A DNA stretch of 64,000 bases. Source: Acidobacteria bacterium SCN 69-37. GTDB lineage: Bacteria; Acidobacteriota; Vicinamibacteria; Vicinamibacterales; SCN-69-37. The DNA is taken from assembly GCA_001724025.1 (NCBI GenBank), contig MEDJ01000009.1:105777-169776 (forward strand). Direction: 5' to 3'. Below are positions 8,733 to 14,949 of this stretch, one piece after another. The translations under genes and the position numbers were made by a program. Within the stretch, counting starts at the first letter, position 1, and each line of letters starts with the position of its first letter. Under the pieces are notes generated by a model, which was not told the DNA's origin, made no database searches, and saw only the letters and a list, made by a program, of their open reading frames with translations.

Positions 8733-8749
8733 CCGGCGACAACCCCCGA

Positions 8750-8899
8750 TCAGTCCTGCCGCACGAGATCCGAGACCTTCCACCGCAGCACGGTGAGCGC
8801 GGGAACGAGACCGGCCGCGGCCACGGCACCGCACAGCGTGAGGGTCGCGGTCAGCCAGACGACGATGTCGACGGCGGACGTCTCAAACAGGTAGCGCTG
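8750..8899 (-). pseudogene. C-terminal remnant resembling an ADOP-type ABC permease
   Basis: Reading leftward from an in-frame TAG at about 8899 to the TGA at 8752-8750 gives RYLFETSAVDIVVWLTATLTL followed by a hydrophobic segment and GLVPALTVLRWKVSDLVRQD. This resembles the last transmembrane helix and tail of MacB/FtsX-like 'acidobacterial duplicated orphan permeases', which typically end LFETSPxDP...LPARRATRVDPMxALR. There is no start codon and no upstream part, so it is a fragment. Its truncation near 8900 marks the left edge of the accessory island. Confidence 0.5.
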
Positions 8900-8954
8900 C
8901 TACATTTACGCCTCGAAGCGACCGCTGACACGCCCGATCGCCGTGGCGCGTGGC

Positions 8955-9899
8955 CTACTCTACCCAGAGCCAGGCCGGAGCGTGCGCAGTCAGCGACACG
9001 TCCGTTGTGCGCACCTCAAGTAGATAACGCCCCGGCGCGAGCCCGGAGACATCGACGCGCAACAGCAGCCGACTGTGCATGGCATCGATGAAATGGTCGT
9101 AGCGCGGCAGGGGATCCTGCCAGCCGAAGCGAGTGGGGGCATCGTTGATACGGAAAATACCGCCGGTTCGTGCCGCCAGTGGGCGAAGGAAGTGCTCGCC
9201 TGGCCCAAGCGTCTTGTCCATGAGACTGCCCGACCAGAACGGCTCGTGCATGGCAAACACCGGAATCCCACGTTCGGCGGCTTCGGCCGCGGCATCAACG
9301 ACGCCAAGCCTGTTGGCCGTTGCGTGACCATCCGTCACCAACACGATGGCCCTGGGGACGGGTTGCGATTCCAAGAGCTGCGCGGCCGATGCCACCGCGT
9401 CCCAGATGGGCGATGGGCCGCTGGCATGCGCCGGGTCTATGGGCTCGAGCAGCATGCGCGCGGCCGCCAGAGTCTCGGCCCGATTCTCGGACCACGCCCC
9501 CGACGTCCACCCCTGGCTTCCCGCGAAACGCATGAGCAGCACGCGATCCCGCGGGCGCAGGCGATTGATGAATCCGTCTGCCATCCCGCTCACCATGCCC
9601 GATCGATCGTGCACGGCAAGGTTCGCGCCCGTTCGACCGCCGCGCAGCATGCTCATCGACACGTCAAAGAGGACGATCCAACTGACGGGCCGCCGTTCGA
9701 TCTCGACCGCGAGCAGTTGGCGCGGAACGCCGTCGACCACAACAGTCACGTCGCGCGTCTCGATCTGTCCCGGGAACGAACCCTCTGATCGCTCGACAAT
9801 GACAGAGACCGAGACGACTGACGTTTGCTTCGGCTGTCCCGTCGAAACAGTCGCGACCAATACCCAGGTGATCGCAAGCGGTCCCATCCGATGCATCAT
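8955..9899 (-). CDS. Secreted VWFA-domain protein with intact MIDAS
   Basis: The 314-residue protein has an N-terminal signal sequence, a short beta domain that includes TRDVTVVVDGVPRQLLA, and a von Willebrand A domain. That domain carries the metal-ion-dependent adhesion site DxSxS (FDVSMSML) and a later TDG (VLVTDGHATANR), so it can probably bind a divalent metal. It belongs to the VWFA-related family abundant in Acidobacteriota; ligands are unknown. It overlaps the upstream VWFA gene by 4 nt (ATGA) and is last in the five-gene minus-strand set that begins with the sigma-like gene at 12661. Confidence 0.8.
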   Translation of the reverse strand: MMHRMGPLAITWVLVATVSTGQPKQTSVVSVSVIVERSEGSFPGQIETRDVTVVVDGVPRQLLAVEIERRPVSWIVLFDVSMSMLRGGRTGANLAVHDRSGMVSGMADGFINRLRPRDRVLLMRFAGSQGWTSGAWSENRAETLAAARMLLEPIDPAHASGPSPIWDAVASAAQLLESQPVPRAIVLVTDGHATANRLGVVDAAAEAAERGIPVFAMHEPFWSGSLMDKTLGPGEHFLRPLAARTGGIFRINDAPTRFGWQDPLPRYDHFIDAMHSRLLLRVDVSGLAPGRYLLEVRTTDVSLTAHAPAWLWVE

Positions 9900-10861
9900 C
9901 GTGCGCCGTTGGAACGGAAGGTGCGCCTGGCGAACACCCTGGTGTCGGGCCGATCGACCCGGACTTCAACACGGTGCCGACGACCGTCGTCTTCTGGAGG
10001 ACTGAATCCAATGAGATAGTCGCGTCGAAGCCCTTCCACGACGCGGGTCATCGTGAGATCGAGGTCCTCGTCGTTGGCCACCTCCGCGTAGCCACCTCCA
10101 GTGTCTCGGCTCATGATCATCACCGGCCGCCCGTCGAAGATCCCGTACGACCGCGGCAGCGGTAGGCCGTAGATGAGCACGTTGTCAGTCAGCGCCCGGC
10201 GCGTCGCATCGCGCATGGACACACATCGCGAATCGGTGGCAGACGTCCCCCAGACTGCCGGCACACACCGGTCACGGTCATCGGGGCCGATAAAGACGAT
10301 GGCGCGCCGCCGGTGGTCATCCACAGCCTCGAAGGCATCCATCGCCAGGCTGGCAACAGTGCTCACGGCATTGATCGGCCCCGGCCACAGCTCTTCCTCG
10401 AGCACACGATGCAGGATCGCCTTGTCCGACGTGAGATGCGGGCTGAGCGCGATCTCGTCCGACATGCTGCCGATGACCGCGACATCGTCGTCTCCGAGCG
10501 CGTCGACGAGTGCCTTGCCGACCACCCGCTGCCGCGCGGCCGGCGCATAGTCCGACGATCGGTGCACTGCTGTGAAAATCAGAATAGCAACCGCCAACGG
10601 GCGCGGGGCGTTCGAAAAGACTTCGATTCGCGCCGACCGTCGGTCGACGAGCACACGAAAGTCCTCGCGGGTGAGGTCGCTGACGAGGTGTCCGTCCCGT
10701 CCGCGGACGGTAGCGGACACCTCGACTATTTCGACGCCACTTCGAAACACAACAGACGGACTATCCTGCGCACCCTGACCCGGTCCAACGCCGAACGCAT
10801 CGACACCGCCCGCGACACCGACGACGAGACCGATCCAGCTGACTCTCCTCAGAAACGTCAC
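9896..10861 (-). CDS. Secreted VWFA-related protein with degenerate MIDAS
   Basis: The 321-residue protein has a signal sequence, then the family's N-terminal beta module (VEIVEVSATVRGRDGHLVSDL, TREDFRVLVD) and a VWFA-like domain. The first MIDAS strand reads ILIFTAVHRSSD, lacking the DxSxS motif its neighbour has, so metal binding is doubtful. The C-terminus holds the VWFA-related ending DYLIGFSPPEDDGRRHRVEVRV. The GTG start at 10861 lies 21 nt after the Cys-rich protein gene. Tandem VWFA genes with and without MIDAS suggest a pair that acts together, which is inference. Confidence 0.78.
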   Translation of the reverse strand: MTFLRRVSWIGLVVGVAGGVDAFGVGPGQGAQDSPSVVFRSGVEIVEVSATVRGRDGHLVSDLTREDFRVLVDRRSARIEVFSNAPRPLAVAILIFTAVHRSSDYAPAARQRVVGKALVDALGDDDVAVIGSMSDEIALSPHLTSDKAILHRVLEEELWPGPINAVSTVASLAMDAFEAVDDHRRRAIVFIGPDDRDRCVPAVWGTSATDSRCVSMRDATRRALTDNVLIYGLPLPRSYGIFDGRPVMIMSRDTGGGYAEVANDEDLDLTMTRVVEGLRRDYLIGFSPPEDDGRRHRVEVRVDRPDTRVFARRTFRSNGAR

Positions 10862-10882
10862 CGAATCACCCGCTTCTCGTAC

Positions 10883-11194
10883 TCAGTAGCACGCGCACTC
10901 TGCCCAGCTCAACCACCAGCCGTTGCCTCCGTCCGAACTCTGACACGACGTCATCCAGGTGAGAGGCCCAGAGTAGTACTGCCAGCACAGGTAGTCGCAG
11001 ATACTCTCCGCGGTTCCGTCAGAACAGGGATCGGTTCCGAACCATCCGCAGGCCCAAATCGATACAGTCTGGCCGGATCCCCCGCTATAGCTGCACGGGA
11101 AGGCCATGGCATTTCGCGCCGGCCCCAATATGACTGCGACCGTCAGCAGTACGACGAACGCTCCACGTTTCATCCACCTTGTGTACCTCAGCAT
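10883..11194 (-). CDS. Small secreted Cys- and Trp-rich protein, unknown family
   Basis: This 103-residue protein has a basic start (MLRYTRWMKR), a hydrophobic core (GAFVVLLTVAVILG) and a probable signal-peptidase site after ARNAMA, residue 31. The mature 72 residues hold eight cysteines (34, 49, 57, 66, 70, 84, 100, 102), an even number suited to four disulfides, and seven tryptophans (47, 51, 71, 80, 93, 94, 97), ending in ECACY. I do not recognise the family. A GGGAG ribosome-binding site precedes the ATG. It lies 36 nt after a DsbA-like gene and 21 nt before VWFA genes, which suggests that the oxidoreductase folds it and the VWFA proteins meet it outside the membrane. Confidence 0.7.
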   Translation of the reverse strand: MLRYTRWMKRGAFVVLLTVAVILGPARNAMAFPCSYSGGSGQTVSIWACGWFGTDPCSDGTAESICDYLCWQYYSGPLTWMTSCQSSDGGNGWWLSWAECACY

Positions 11195-11230
11195 GTTCTT
11201 CTCCCTTCATTCACGACACGATTGTCACGC

Positions 11231-11959
11231 CTACGAGGCGCCAAGAATGCGCGTGATCATCAGTTCGAATTCCTCGAGTGGCCTGGCCCCCGCCACCGCC
11301 TCAGAGACGTCGACGAAGTTCCCTGCAGTCACCCGACCCGCGAAGAACGTCGGGGTTCCGCTCACCGCGAGTCCCCGCGCCAGTTCACCGTCAGACGTTA
11401 CGCGAGCGCTTACAGCGGCCTCGCTCAAGCAGGTATCGAATGCGATCAAATCCAGTCCGATCTCGCCGGCGTGTATTCTCAGATCATCGTCAGACAGGCG
11501 CATGGGCGGTGCGAACGCGAGGTCGTGAAACGGCCAGAAGGCGCTTTGTCGTGCCGCACACTCAGCCGCGATGGCGGCCGGGACGGCCCTGGAGTGTATC
11601 GGCAACGCAAAATGCCGGAACGCCAACTGTACTTGACCCGCATCAACGAACTTCTGCCGCAGACCTGGGAGCACCTCGGTAGCGAATCGTGCGCAGAAGG
11701 GGCACTCGAAGTCGGAGAACATCACCAACGCGATCGGCGCCTCCCTCGAACCCAGGATAGGCGCCCCCTCCAGCGACAACGGCTTATCCGGGATGGGGAG
11801 CGTCGGACTGCTTCCGGCAACGGCGGCAGTTCGTCCCGCAAGAGCCGTCCACGCCAGCAGTCCGGCAGCCCCAAACATGGCGACGGATGCCACGATATCC
11901 AGAAGGGCCCTGAGCGACACCCGTCGTATCGTCCCAGACTCTCGCTCTGGCTCTGACAT
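11231..11959 (-). CDS. Membrane-anchored DsbA/BdbD-like thiol oxidoreductase
   Basis: The 242-residue protein has one N-terminal transmembrane anchor (about 18-42) and then a DsbA-type thioredoxin domain. It has the active site CPFC at residues 86-89 in FSDFECPFCARFATEV, a helical insertion typical of DsbA (including a Cys in AAECAARQ), and the cis-proline loop SGTPTFFAG near 200. Such proteins introduce or reshuffle disulfides in exported proteins. An AGGAG site precedes the ATG. Its immediate neighbour downstream is the eight-cysteine secreted protein, the obvious candidate substrate. Another possible role is general disulfide formation. Confidence 0.87.
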   Translation of the reverse strand: MSEPERESGTIRRVSLRALLDIVASVAMFGAAGLLAWTALAGRTAAVAGSSPTLPIPDKPLSLEGAPILGSREAPIALVMFSDFECPFCARFATEVLPGLRQKFVDAGQVQLAFRHFALPIHSRAVPAAIAAECAARQSAFWPFHDLAFAPPMRLSDDDLRIHAGEIGLDLIAFDTCLSEAAVSARVTSDGELARGLAVSGTPTFFAGRVTAGNFVDVSEAVAGARPLEEFELMITRILGAS

Positions 11960-12027
11960 GACACTCTCCTAGATAGTGCAATTCGACATGCCACTTGGAC
12001 AGCGTGTCGTTCGCTATCGTTGTGCTT

Positions 12028-12056
12028 TCTATACGCCGCAGCGAGGCGATTTCCAA
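12028..12056 (-). promoter_or_regulatory. Promoter before the DsbA-like gene
   Basis: On the minus strand TTGGAA (complement of 12051-12056), a 17-nt spacer and TATAGA (complement of 12028-12033) lie in the 114-nt gap between the sigma-like gene and the DsbA-like gene. This would allow the last four genes of the set to be transcribed separately from the sigma-like gene. Confidence 0.45.
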
Positions 12057-12073
12057 CATGTGACGCTCGCCAC

Positions 12074-12661
12074 TCATGCTCTCGGCGCGCCGAGCGCGCG
12101 GCGGGCACGCATACGCAAACGTTCGGTCGTTCGCTTGACGAGCCGCCGCTGCTCGTCTTCGGAGAACTCGTCACCGCCCAGCAGCGATGCCAATCGTGCG
12201 ACGGTCCGTTCCCCGTCGACCCACGCTTCCAAGAACCGCCATTCCTCACTCGTCTTGCATAACCTCGTCGGTTCGATCACCCTTACGTCGCCGTCGCGGT
12301 CCTCGGCCGCCGTCATGACGATGGAGGCCCGCGCGACGGACGCTTCATTCGCGTGGCGGCGCAGTTCTCGTCGAATCATGTCGATCGCCAGTCTGACCGC
12401 CACGATGGCCAGAAACGTATCGAGGCGACTGCGCGACGGCTCGTAAATGGCGGGCGACTGAAGGTACTTGAGAATGGCATCCGACGCCGCGTCGGAAGCG
12501 GTGTCGACGTCAATGCCAGGCAATCGAATGCGGATCGCCAGTTTGAGCCTCGGGAGCAAGCAGGTCGCGAGTTGTTCCCGGACCTCGTCTCCACCGCTGC
12601 GCAACAGGCACTCGTGTAACGCGTTCAGATGCGACCGCAATTCATTCGTGTCGCGAGACAT
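12074..12661 (-). CDS. Sigma-70-family (ECF-like) RNA polymerase sigma factor
   Basis: The 195-residue protein has a sigma region-2-like helical core, with ATCLLPRLKLAIRIRLPG, an acidic DVDTASDAASDAILKYL stretch and RLDTFLAIVAVRLAIDMIRRE. A shorter C-terminal region resembles region 4 (EEWRFLEAWVDGERTVARLASLLGG), ending in a basic helix. Similarity is by pattern only, and region 4 is weak. The ATG at 12661 (MSRDTNELRSHL) fits better than an upstream in-frame ATG at 12757, which adds a Cys-containing lead unlike sigma factors. No anti-sigma gene is visible next to it. It probably drives the downstream DsbA/Cys-rich/VWFA genes. Confidence 0.68.
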   Translation of the reverse strand: MSRDTNELRSHLNALHECLLRSGGDEVREQLATCLLPRLKLAIRIRLPGIDVDTASDAASDAILKYLQSPAIYEPSRSRLDTFLAIVAVRLAIDMIRRELRRHANEASVARASIVMTAAEDRDGDVRVIEPTRLCKTSEEWRFLEAWVDGERTVARLASLLGGDEFSEDEQRRLVKRTTERLRMRARRALGAPRA

Positions 12662-12757
12662 GGCAACGCATCCGTACCGGCGCACTCCGATGGCGAGCGC
12701 CAGTCGACCGCGCAGTGCGTCGGGGGAGCATCCGCTGGTCTGCGCCGAGACAATCAC

Positions 12758-13025
12758 TACTTAGAGAGCGCGACCGTAACCCTTTTCTGGTCGTATGTCA
12801 ATCCACTCCGTCAGACGTCGAATTGGTTCAATCCGACAGGAAGAGATCGTTCCTATTACAGCCCGATGGCTAACTGGTCGCGAGGCCATCCTTGCGTTGG
12901 AAGTCGGCCACCGCGTGCGCGCCGATCCTGTAGTCGCGCTTCCGACCGATACACAATTGCGGCGTCTACAAACAGCTTCCGACGACGCCCCCGAGTGAGT
13001 GCGCCCACCGGGCGATTCGAGTTGA
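12758..13025. other. Spacer without a confident gene
   Basis: About 270 nt of lower-GC sequence. A 67-codon plus-strand frame (12795-12998, MSIHSVRRRIGSIRQEE...) has an ATG but no ribosome-binding site, mixed GC3 and no recognised family, so I do not call it a gene. The stretch separates the sigma-like gene from the divergent VWFA fragment. Confidence 0.4.
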
Positions 13026-13310
13026 GTGTCGATAACGTTCTCCGGCTCCGTGAGCCTACTGCTGCCTCTCGGCGCCACCCTGCCGCTGACGGGACCGGTG
13101 ACGGAAGCGCGAGCCGACACGCGGGCCTTTCGCTTGTTGGTCGACGTCGTTCATCTCGCTGTGTCGATGCTCGACGGAACGGCGTGCGGCACGCGCCCTC
13201 ACGACGAAGGACTTCACCGTATTCGAGGGCGACGTGGCTCGGCCGCTCCTCGAGTTCTCGGAGATCGACGTCCCGACCGCGCGCTCAGAACCTGGTTGCC
13301 GCGCCGGCGA
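13026..13310 (+). pseudogene. Frameshifted N-terminal fragment of a VWFA-related protein
   Basis: The first frame gives a signal-like lead and RAFRLLVDVVHLAVSMLDG. At about 13170 the homology moves to the next frame, giving ERRAARALTTKDFTVFEGD and then VARPLLEFSEIDVP. Together these match the canonical beginning of Acidobacteriota VWFA-related proteins (VDVVxLxVSVLD...RGLTxxDFxVxEDGxxxPIxxFSxxDxP). The frame change and the loss of everything after about 13310, where ParE begins on the other strand, show a decayed gene. It would be the third VWFA gene of the island. Confidence 0.62.
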
Positions 13311-13320
13311 TGGAACGCCG

Positions 13321-13617
13321 CTATGGCAGGTGGGTCGGCAGGTCCATGCGCTGATGAAGGATACGCAAGACCTCGATCGCGTCCGCGTCGTCCAGGCGGT
13401 AGACCACGACGTGCCGGCCGACGGTCTGCTTGAAGCAACCTTCGCGGATCTCGTCGATGGCCCGGCCCTTCTGGCTACCCGCGGCGAGAGCCTCGATGGT
13501 CCGCATGATGTCGTTCGTGTAGAGGTCGGCCTGGCCGGGACTCCATTGCCCCGCCGTGTAGCGCCAGATCCCGGCAAGGTCGGCTCGGGCTGCCGGCCGG
13601 AAGAGCACTCGCCTCAT
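13321..13617 (-). CDS. parE: ParE/RelE-family toxin
   Basis: The 98-residue protein fits the ParE fold. It begins RRVLFRPAARADLAGIWRYTAGQW, continues with AAGSQKGRAIDEIREGCFK and the basic strand HVVVYRLDDADAIEVLRILHQRMD near the end. ParE toxins poison DNA gyrase. The ATG overlaps the antitoxin stop by 4 nt (ATGA), the standard antitoxin-toxin coupling. The pair sits where a VWFA gene was interrupted, consistent with acquisition as part of the island. Confidence 0.88.
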   Translation of the reverse strand: MRRVLFRPAARADLAGIWRYTAGQWSPGQADLYTNDIMRTIEALAAGSQKGRAIDEIREGCFKQTVGRHVVVYRLDDADAIEVLRILHQRMDLPTHLP

Positions 13618-13871
13618 CCGCGGTGCTGCGCGCGCTGGTCTTTGAGGAAGGCGGCGTAGTCAAACGGCTCGGCTGGGCCACTGTCTTCCCCGGCAACGAT
13701 GGCCGCGCGCAGCGCCGCGACCCTGGCCGCGCGCGCTTCTTCGTGTTCTTCGAGGAGCCGCAGTCCCGCCCGGACCACCTCGCTGGCAGAGCCATAGCGC
13801 CCTTGCGAAACCTGGCGGTCGAGGAAGCTGTTGAAATGGTCTCCGAGATTGAATGACGTGGTCTTGGCCAT
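13614..13871 (-). CDS. parD: ParD-family antitoxin
   Basis: The 85-residue protein has the ribbon-helix-helix start MAKTTSFNLGDHFNSFLDRQ followed by the motif GRYGSASEVVRAGLRLLEEHE and an acidic C-terminal tail that would wrap ParE. The ATG at 13871 is preferred over an in-frame GTG/ATG further upstream because it aligns with ParD N-termini and leaves the AT-rich promoter/operator free. ParD normally represses its own operon. Confidence 0.9.
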   Translation of the reverse strand: MAKTTSFNLGDHFNSFLDRQVSQGRYGSASEVVRAGLRLLEEHEEARAARVAALRAAIVAGEDSGPAEPFDYAAFLKDQRAQHRG

Positions 13872-13885
13872 GGCGTTCTTCGACT

Positions 13886-13897
13886 TTGTAGCTACAA
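13886..13897 (-). promoter_or_regulatory. Palindromic operator before parD
   Basis: TTGTAGCTACAA is a perfect 12-bp palindrome 15 nt before the parD ATG, within the most AT-rich stretch of the region. TACTAT and TATATT boxes overlap or adjoin it on the minus strand. Placement and symmetry fit autorepression by a ribbon-helix-helix protein. Confidence 0.5.
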
Positions 13898-13928
13898 TAT
13901 AGTAATTATTGGTAGTCACCAAGACCAA

Positions 13929-14239
13929 CGCTATGCCCTACTGGCACCGGGCGGCGCGACGACTCGTCGACCCGCGCCAGCACGGTCGCCGGGTCGTGGG
14001 GATCACATCGATCACCTGCGTCAGCGACCTGCACGGGTCGCGGAACCGGTGGTGCCACACCTTCGAGATCAGGACGCGCGTGTGCGGCGATCGCGACGAC
14101 GAGCTGCGCAAGCGGCCGCGACGATGTGCGGAGACGCCTGACGGCCGTTGCGGAAGTCACAGTCGCGATGTGGCGCGACTGGTGGCAGCGGCTGTCGAAC
14201 AGACCGCGAGACCCTCGGGAGATCGAATCGACGACCTGC
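13929..14239. other. Gene-free spacer downstream of the toxin-antitoxin promoter
   Basis: About 310 nt with no reading frame that I can tie to a protein family. Short frames on both strands lack ribosome-binding sites and family signatures. It may be decayed mobile-element sequence given the repeats that follow, but I see no transposase motif. Confidence 0.35.
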
Positions 14240-14650
14240 GGCGGGCACGATCACCGGGCGCGGAAGGCACGATCAGCAGTCAGGGAAGTCACGATCACTG
14301 GTCAGGGAAGTAACAAAAGCACTCCGAGCAGCACGTAACCGATTGGCTACAGGCCACTTGTCGGATCGCGGAATCTTTCTCGTTTTGTGACCCGCGCGAC
14401 CGGTCACAGTGGTCGGCGAAAACGCTTTCACCGATCGTCCTGATCGTTTCAGGTGACCGGCACGGAGCGTTCGGGTGATCGGCGCCTGCCGTTCGGGTGC
14501 CTGCGGCGGTCGGTTCGGGCGATGACGATGACCCGGTTGCCCGATCAGCACAACCGGTTTCCCCTGTCGCGCCGACCCGTTCGCGTGGTCGGCGTGTCCC
14601 GTTCAGGTGATCGGCAGGCCCCGTTCAGGTGATCGGCGCACACCCTTGGT
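14240..14650. repeat. Clusters of short IS-end-like repeats without a transposase
   Basis: At the left, units of the form (A/G)GGCACGATCA...GTCAGGGAAGT recur (about 14245, 14265, 14290). At the right, units CGTTCAGGTGATCGGC or CGTTCGGGTGATCGGC recur in the other sense (about 14445, 14468, 14605, 14628). Both share GATCACC/GGTGATC, with about 22-23 nt between neighbouring units. Multiple short terminal repeats of this kind flank IS21-like elements. No transposase lies between them, so this may be a solo or collapsed element. Identification is by resemblance. Confidence 0.4.
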
Positions 14651-14820
14651 TCGATCGCGCGATCCCGTTCCACTGCCCCGCGCAACCGCTTGCAGTGATC
14701 GCGGTGACCGCTCCCGGTGATCCACGCGAGCCGACGGACGCCATGTCGTGCTGCGCGACGAGATTGGATTGCCGGAAGGCCCGGTGTCGGCCGCCGCGCA
14801 GTCTCCCGTGCGGGTCCATC

Positions 14821-14842
14821 CCCTGGGGCTGAAGCCCCAGGG
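14821..14842. repeat. Dispersed palindrome (REP-like), copy 1
   Basis: CCCTGGGGCT and its exact complement flank a GA centre, followed by GCTCCGAGCGTC. Four more copies occur at 21601, 22657, 37968 and 50531. Confidence 0.75.
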
Positions 14843-14851
14843 CTCCGAGCG

Positions 14852-14949
14852 TCTGGTCGCCTCGTAGCCCCGCAGCCTTGTAGCCCCGCGCCCCCGTCAC
14901 CTCCCGCCCTTCCAGCCTGCCTCCCAGGCTGCAGCCTCCCCGCCTCCCC
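14852..14949. repeat. GC-rich intergenic repeats at the murA 3' end
   Basis: A family-B stretch (CGTAGCCCCGCAGCCTTGTAGCCCC) runs directly into a family-A stretch (CCTTCCAGCCTGCCTCCCAGGCTGCAGCC, then CCCCGCCTCC), ending at the murA stop codon. No -10-like sequence follows. Confidence 0.7.

What the first reader, a model, noticed from the sequence alone, without database searches (positions are those of the whole stretch)
8955..12661. Candidate undescribed secretion/folding operon: sigma factor, DsbA-like oxidoreductase, Cys/Trp-rich secreted protein, two VWFA proteins
Five genes lie on one strand with gaps of 114, 36, 21 and -4 nt. The centrepiece is a 103-residue exported protein whose mature 72 residues hold 8 Cys and 7 Trp and match no family I know. 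A membrane-anchored CPFC oxidoreductase is directly upstream and two VWFA proteins directly downstream, under a sigma-like regulator. The sequence shows the genes and spacing. That the oxidoreductase oxidises the small protein, and that the VWFA proteins display, bind or sense it, is inference.
Basis: partly seen in the sequence, partly recalled or inferred. Interest (0 to 1): 0.8.

Follow-up and report, generated by a model that had tools for sequence, protein, structure and literature searches.

The report
Disulfide-folding cassette for variable Cys-rich proteins
An acidobacterium carries a mobile-looking gene set that pairs its own disulfide-forming enzyme with a fast-changing, cysteine-rich exported protein, and the same pairing recurs at about ten other places with different cysteine-rich proteins, which points to an undescribed secretion or competition module whose job is still unknown.

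Summary
The five genes are real and placed as described. The 103-aa protein has no family, and a sequence search of 162 genomes of its order found no credible homologue. The DsbA-like gene gave the way in. It belongs to a clade of 11 genes (support 87/87) in six genomes. Strict criteria place an exported Cys-rich ORF beside 7 of 11; inspection gives 10 of 11. Non-clade DsbA loci give 1 of 52 and 0 of 79 (Fisher about 4e-6 and 4e-8; criteria set after first sight). The Cys-rich proteins are nearly unalignable, though six of ten share CDxxC. Partners also recur: VWFA at 5 of 11 loci, ADOP MacB-like permease at 5 of 11, and a C-terminal ADOP scrap just after the window's VWFA genes. The sigma-like gene recurs at one other locus only. 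The cassette is accessory: GC 63% against 69%, and the nearest relative has murA and the secretin gene 95 bp apart where the window holds 6.2 kb. Another genome carries a sister cassette beside the same murA. Best reading: a dedicated oxidase folds a diversifying Sec-exported protein, then handled by MacB-like/VWFA partners, as DsbA and MacAB-TolC handle enterotoxin STII. Folding partnership likely; export and purpose inferred.

The parts
12074..12661 (-). sigma-70-like regulator (region 2); ORF may begin at GTG 12757
   Evidence: Pfam Sigma70_r2 29.8 bits; relative at G067 beside another DsbA/Cys-rich pair
11231..11959 (-). membrane-anchored DsbA-like thiol oxidoreductase, CPFC, cis-Pro TP motif
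   Evidence: Thioredoxin_4/DSBA; clade of 11; closest solved structures by sequence are BdbD and DsbA proteins
10883..11194 (-). 103-aa exported Cys/Trp-rich protein, predicted substrate
   Evidence: no Pfam/NCBIfam family; only chance-level antibody matches in PDB sequences; CDxxC motif shared with five other such proteins
9896..10861 (-). exported VWFA protein, TIGR03436, degenerate metal-binding motif
   Evidence: 93.7 bits, cut-off 81.25; motif read by eye
8955..9899 (-). exported VWA protein with DVSMS metal-binding motif; tandem partner of the preceding gene
   Evidence: VWA_2 26.5 bits, just under cut-off 27; the two VWA genes recur in tandem in G073 and G001
8750..8899 (-). remnant of ADOP permease C-terminus (no start codon, preceded by stops)
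   Evidence: TIGR03434 E 9e-4 aligned to profile 756-801 of 803, the only family hit in NCBIfam; no Pfam hit
8733..14949 (.). accessory insertion between secretin-like gene and murA; also holds ParDE-like genes 13321-13928
   Evidence: same-genus G064 has murA and secretin 95 bp apart; cluster GC 0.634 against 0.69 for the window

Best explanation
This is an accessory, horizontally moving cassette that makes and processes a Cys-rich secreted protein. The small protein is exported by Sec. The co-encoded membrane-anchored DsbA-like enzyme then forms its disulfides in the periplasm and is recharged by the genome's single DsbB. In the ancestral layout a MacB-like ADOP permease and VWFA proteins act on the folded product in the periplasm or at the outer membrane, most likely moving it out. 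In the window the permease has been lost, so the VWFA pair, or a permease elsewhere in the genome, would have to do this step. Shown: genes, spacing, recurrence, diversity of the Cys-rich partner, insertion at a hotspot. Inferred: substrate relation, direction of the redox reaction, export role, and a final use in antagonism or signalling.
For: DsbA clade of 11 with 87/87 support. Cys-rich exported ORF beside 7 of 11 by strict rule, against 1 of 52 and 0 of 79 non-clade DsbA loci; by inspection three more: L045 about 76-101 aa with 9 Cys, L048 with four C-terminal Cys, L051 Gly/Cys-rich membrane protein. ADOP permeases at L043, L045, L047, L048, L050 against none in 304 kb of control sequence. 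VWFA at the window, two G072 loci, G062 and G070. ADOP scrap in the window. One DsbB over cut-off in the genome. Closest solved relatives by sequence are DsbA-type proteins such as BdbD. Precedent: STII goes Sec, then DsbA, then MacAB-TolC (PMC5985334).
Against: No direct evidence of substrate relation or transcription; no sigma-70-type promoter match in the region. ADOP permeases lack an ATPase domain of their own and none is intact in the window. VWFA and ADOP each occur at only about half of the loci. At G062 no Cys-rich gene was seen beside the DsbA. Whether the enzyme is an oxidase or an isomerase cannot be told from sequence.
Confidence: 0.5

Rival explanations
1. The Cys-rich proteins are diversifying antagonistic or bacteriocin-like effectors, and the ADOP/VWFA partners give export or self-protection; the cassette is a competition module kept by rapid turnover.
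For: Patchy, multi-copy, low-GC insertions (three clade loci in the window's genome, three in G072, two in G070), near-zero similarity between partners while the DsbA stays 35-42% identical, a shared hotspot beside murA holding different content in G070.
Against: No immunity gene, no toxin-family match, no defence-family match; no activity data.
Confidence: 0.2
2. The cassette is a redox or metal sensing system: the Cys-rich protein is a sensor or sink, the DsbA-like protein resets it, and the sigma factor controls the response.
For: A sigma-like gene starts the window operon and one other locus.
Against: The sigma relative was found at only 2 of 11 loci; no anti-sigma gene was seen in the window cluster; the Cys-rich proteins are too diverse for one sensory chemistry.
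Confidence: 0.1
3. Unrelated accessory genes landed together in an insertion hotspot, and DsbA and the Cys-rich gene are neighbours by chance.
For: The block is an insertion with ParDE-like genes at its edge.
Against: The same pairing recurs at unlinked loci far above controls; VWFA and ADOP recur too.
Confidence: 0.05

Closest known systems
STII enterotoxin pathway of E. coli (Sec, DsbA, MacAB-TolC)
   Same: Small Sec-exported disulfide protein, DsbA-type oxidase, MacB-type periplasmic permease (PMC5985334).
   Different: Here the oxidase is dedicated and co-encoded, the permease is ADOP without an ATPase domain (only a remnant in the window), and VWFA proteins are added; no MacA or TolC seen in the clusters.
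Dedicated Bdb oxidases with sublancin-type bacteriocins (own knowledge)
   Same: Thiol oxidase encoded beside a small disulfide peptide; BdbD is among the nearest solved relatives of P0002.
   Different: No leader peptidase transporter and no glycosyltransferase; the substrate has a Sec-type signal and 8 Cys.
NVEALA and related Cys-containing small secreted proteins of Bacteroidota with redoxin neighbours (own knowledge)
   Same: Small secreted Cys proteins near thioredoxin-fold genes.
   Different: P0003 matched no Pfam or NCBIfam model at E up to 1; no direct comparison with NVEALA proteins was made.
Acidobacterial VWFA (TIGR03436) and ADOP (TIGR03434) modules
   Same: P0004 is a TIGR03436 member; a VWFA pair next to ADOP occurs without DsbA in G073.
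   Different: Here the pair is joined to a DsbA and a Cys-rich protein.

Membership tests
DsbA/Thioredoxin_4 thiol oxidoreductases | thioredoxin fold family score and CxxC | tested here: met
   79 bits, cut-off 23.2; C86-P-F-C89 with both Cys invariant in the ten-row alignment
DsbA/Thioredoxin_4 thiol oxidoreductases | cis-proline loop T-P | tested here: met
   T202 and P203 invariant
DsbA/Thioredoxin_4 thiol oxidoreductases | net oxidase activity | not testable with these tools
   needs redox assay; one DsbB partner gene present in the genome, no VKOR
TIGR03436 acidobacterial VWFA (P0004) | score over curated cut-off | tested here: met
   93.7 bits, cut-off 81.25
TIGR03436 acidobacterial VWFA (second gene, P0005) | score over curated cut-off | tested here: not met
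   13.1 bits; general VWA_2 26.5 of 27
ADOP permease TIGR03434 | full-length duplicated permease in the window | tested here: not met
   only a 49-aa C-terminal remnant, E 9e-4
ADOP permease TIGR03434 (sister loci) | score over curated cut-off 622.3 | tested here: not met
   five permeases at 358-467 bits, E below 1e-100: divergent relatives
ECF sigma factor | sigma region 2 plus TIGR02937 cut-off | tested here: inconclusive
   Sigma70_r2 passes (29.8 of 24); TIGR02937 25.2 of 42.9
MacAB-TolC/STII type export | MacB with ATPase, MacA, TolC in the cluster | tested here: not met
   none seen among the genes read in the clusters; the ADOP tested has MacB_PCD and FtsX domains only
known Cys-rich peptide families | match to a Pfam, NCBIfam or PDB sequence | tested here: not met
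   (only weak antibody matches)
known anti-phage defence systems | match to PADLOC models | tested here: not met

The most novel reading that the evidence does not exclude
A previously undescribed, mobile secretion or competition system of Acidobacteriota in which each copy pairs a dedicated disulfide oxidase with its own unrelated-looking Cys-rich exported protein, processed by ADOP permeases and VWFA proteins, two abundant acidobacterial families whose function is unknown.
Probability: 0.3. Interest if true: 0.8.

Novelty: new variant of a known kind. Interest (0 to 1): 0.6.

Why it matters
ADOP permeases and TIGR03436 VWFA proteins are abundant in Acidobacteriota and, to my knowledge, have no assigned function. 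A compact cassette tying them to a dedicated oxidase and a small secreted protein makes that function testable. The diversity of the Cys-rich partners also suggests a source of unexplored disulfide-rich secreted proteins.

Tried and rejected
Sequence search for homologues of the small protein: one 0.005 hit in G006 lies among genes that look like core amino-acid biosynthesis and was rejected; genome contigs gave none. Cys-rich profile hits in G092 and in G276/G313 rejected: the first lies among core metabolic genes with no exported Cys-rich ORF, the second matches a Cys motif inside a response regulator. AlphaFold of P0003 alone: pLDDT 54, not used. My own six-sequence model of ADOP C-termini did not detect the window remnant above shuffles and Pfam missed it; only the curated TIGR03434 model did, so the remnant is moderately, not strongly, supported. 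Literature searches for ADOP, NVEALA and acidobacterial Cys-rich/DsbA systems found nothing on the cassette. Defence-system reading rejected.

Full report
Observation. The small protein has 72 mature residues with 8 Cys and 7 Trp, and no family in Pfam or NCBIfam. The first gene passes Sigma70_r2 only. The second passes Thioredoxin_4 and DSBA. The fourth passes TIGR03436; the fifth is a VWA just under the Pfam cut-off.

The small protein alone leads nowhere: no credible homologue in 162 genomes of the order or in the genome-contig collection. The neighbouring DsbA-like gene does lead somewhere. Its closest relatives in the order form a clade of 11 genes, with the window gene inside it, at 87/87 support. 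They lie in six genomes: the window's own genome three times (window, C23, C1), G072 three times, G070 twice, and G062, G067 and G001 once each.

Around these genes I looked for exported Cys-rich ORFs. The finds on the same strand are: window 103 aa with 8 Cys; G067 101 aa with 8; G072 174 aa with 22 plus 88 aa with 7, 223 aa with 30, and about 76-101 aa with 9; own C23 78 aa with 6; G001 103 aa with 10; G070 101 aa with 10. Own C1 has a protein ending in four Cys, and the second G070 gene sits beside a Gly/Cys-rich membrane protein. G062 has none visible. With one fixed strict rule and 1.5 kb flanks, 7 of 11 clade loci have such an ORF, against 1 of 52 non-clade acidobacterial DsbA loci (itself doubtful) and 0 of 79 others. 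The rule was set after first sight of the cases, so the Fisher values (4e-6, 4e-8) are indicative. One further case, L119, has a 170-aa protein with 18 Cys just before a DsbA with an N-terminal extension; the rule missed it because of an over-long ORF call.

The Cys-rich proteins are almost unalignable. Still, CDxxC occurs in 6 of 10, where shuffles that keep Cys positions give 1.5 on average and never 6 in 2000 (motif chosen after inspection). A profile of them finds only these loci in the order, and nothing convincing in 396 phylum genomes.

Other partners recur. VWFA of TIGR03436 type: window, two G072 clusters, G062, G070 (the two G072 ones score below the cut-off). The genome has 21 such hits in 4.43 Mb, so about 5% of 5-kb neighbourhoods would hold one by chance. 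ADOP permeases: G067, the third G072 cluster, own C23, own C1, G070, none in 304 kb of control sequence. TPR and carboxypeptidase-regulatory-like proteins also appear. In G070 the order is Cys-rich, DsbA, TPR, VWFA, ADOP. In the window, just past the second VWFA gene, a 49-residue fragment matches the last positions (756-801 of 803) of the ADOP model, which suggests a lost permease in the expected place. A tandem pair of VWFA genes next to ADOP, without DsbA or Cys-rich gene, exists in G073. The sigma relative appears once more, in G067.

The block is accessory. Its GC is 0.634 against 0.69. In the same-genus genome G064 murA and the secretin-like gene stand 95 bp apart, while the window has 6.2 kb there; in G070 a sister cluster lies beside the same murA.

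Mechanism. Shown: gene content, recurrence, diversity of partners, insertion. From family knowledge: P0002 is a membrane-anchored thiol oxidoreductase with CPFC and a cis-Pro loop, nearest by sequence to BdbD and DsbA structures; the genome has one DsbB and no VKOR. Inferred: it oxidises the Cys-rich protein after Sec export, and ADOP/VWFA partners handle the folded product. The nearest worked example is STII, which is exported by Sec, oxidised by the Dsb system and pushed out by MacAB-TolC (PMC5985334). This is likeness of working, not membership.

Limits.

Noticed in passing
window 13321-13928: ParE/ParD-like toxin-antitoxin gene pair within the same insertion, between the cassette and murA (recognised by eye, not tested against families).
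   Followed up: no
window 8733-14949; L188 6614-6709; L050 6393-7643: The junction between murA and the secretin-like gene behaves as an insertion hotspot: 95 bp in G064, 6.2 kb in the window, a sister cluster beside murA in G070.
   Followed up: yes
L119 5968-7582: Acidobacteriota record with a 170-aa, 18-Cys exported protein directly before a DsbA with an N-terminal extension resembling SurA (by eye): a second, separate oxidase/Cys-rich pairing.
   Followed up: partly
rows for G444, G374, G359, G267 and others: Several acidobacterial DsbA relatives have an in-frame TGA, as could be expected for selenocysteine in the NF041057 (seleno)lipoprotein family.
   Followed up: no
L198 1052-5854: PadR-like regulator, ADOP permease and two tandem VWFA genes, the same VWFA pair as in the window but without DsbA or Cys-rich gene.
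   Followed up: partly
L048 1-12000 (own genome C1 start): Low-GC (0.616) region with transposase-like sequence at the contig end, ADOP, a Cys-tailed protein and a clade DsbA.
   Followed up: partly
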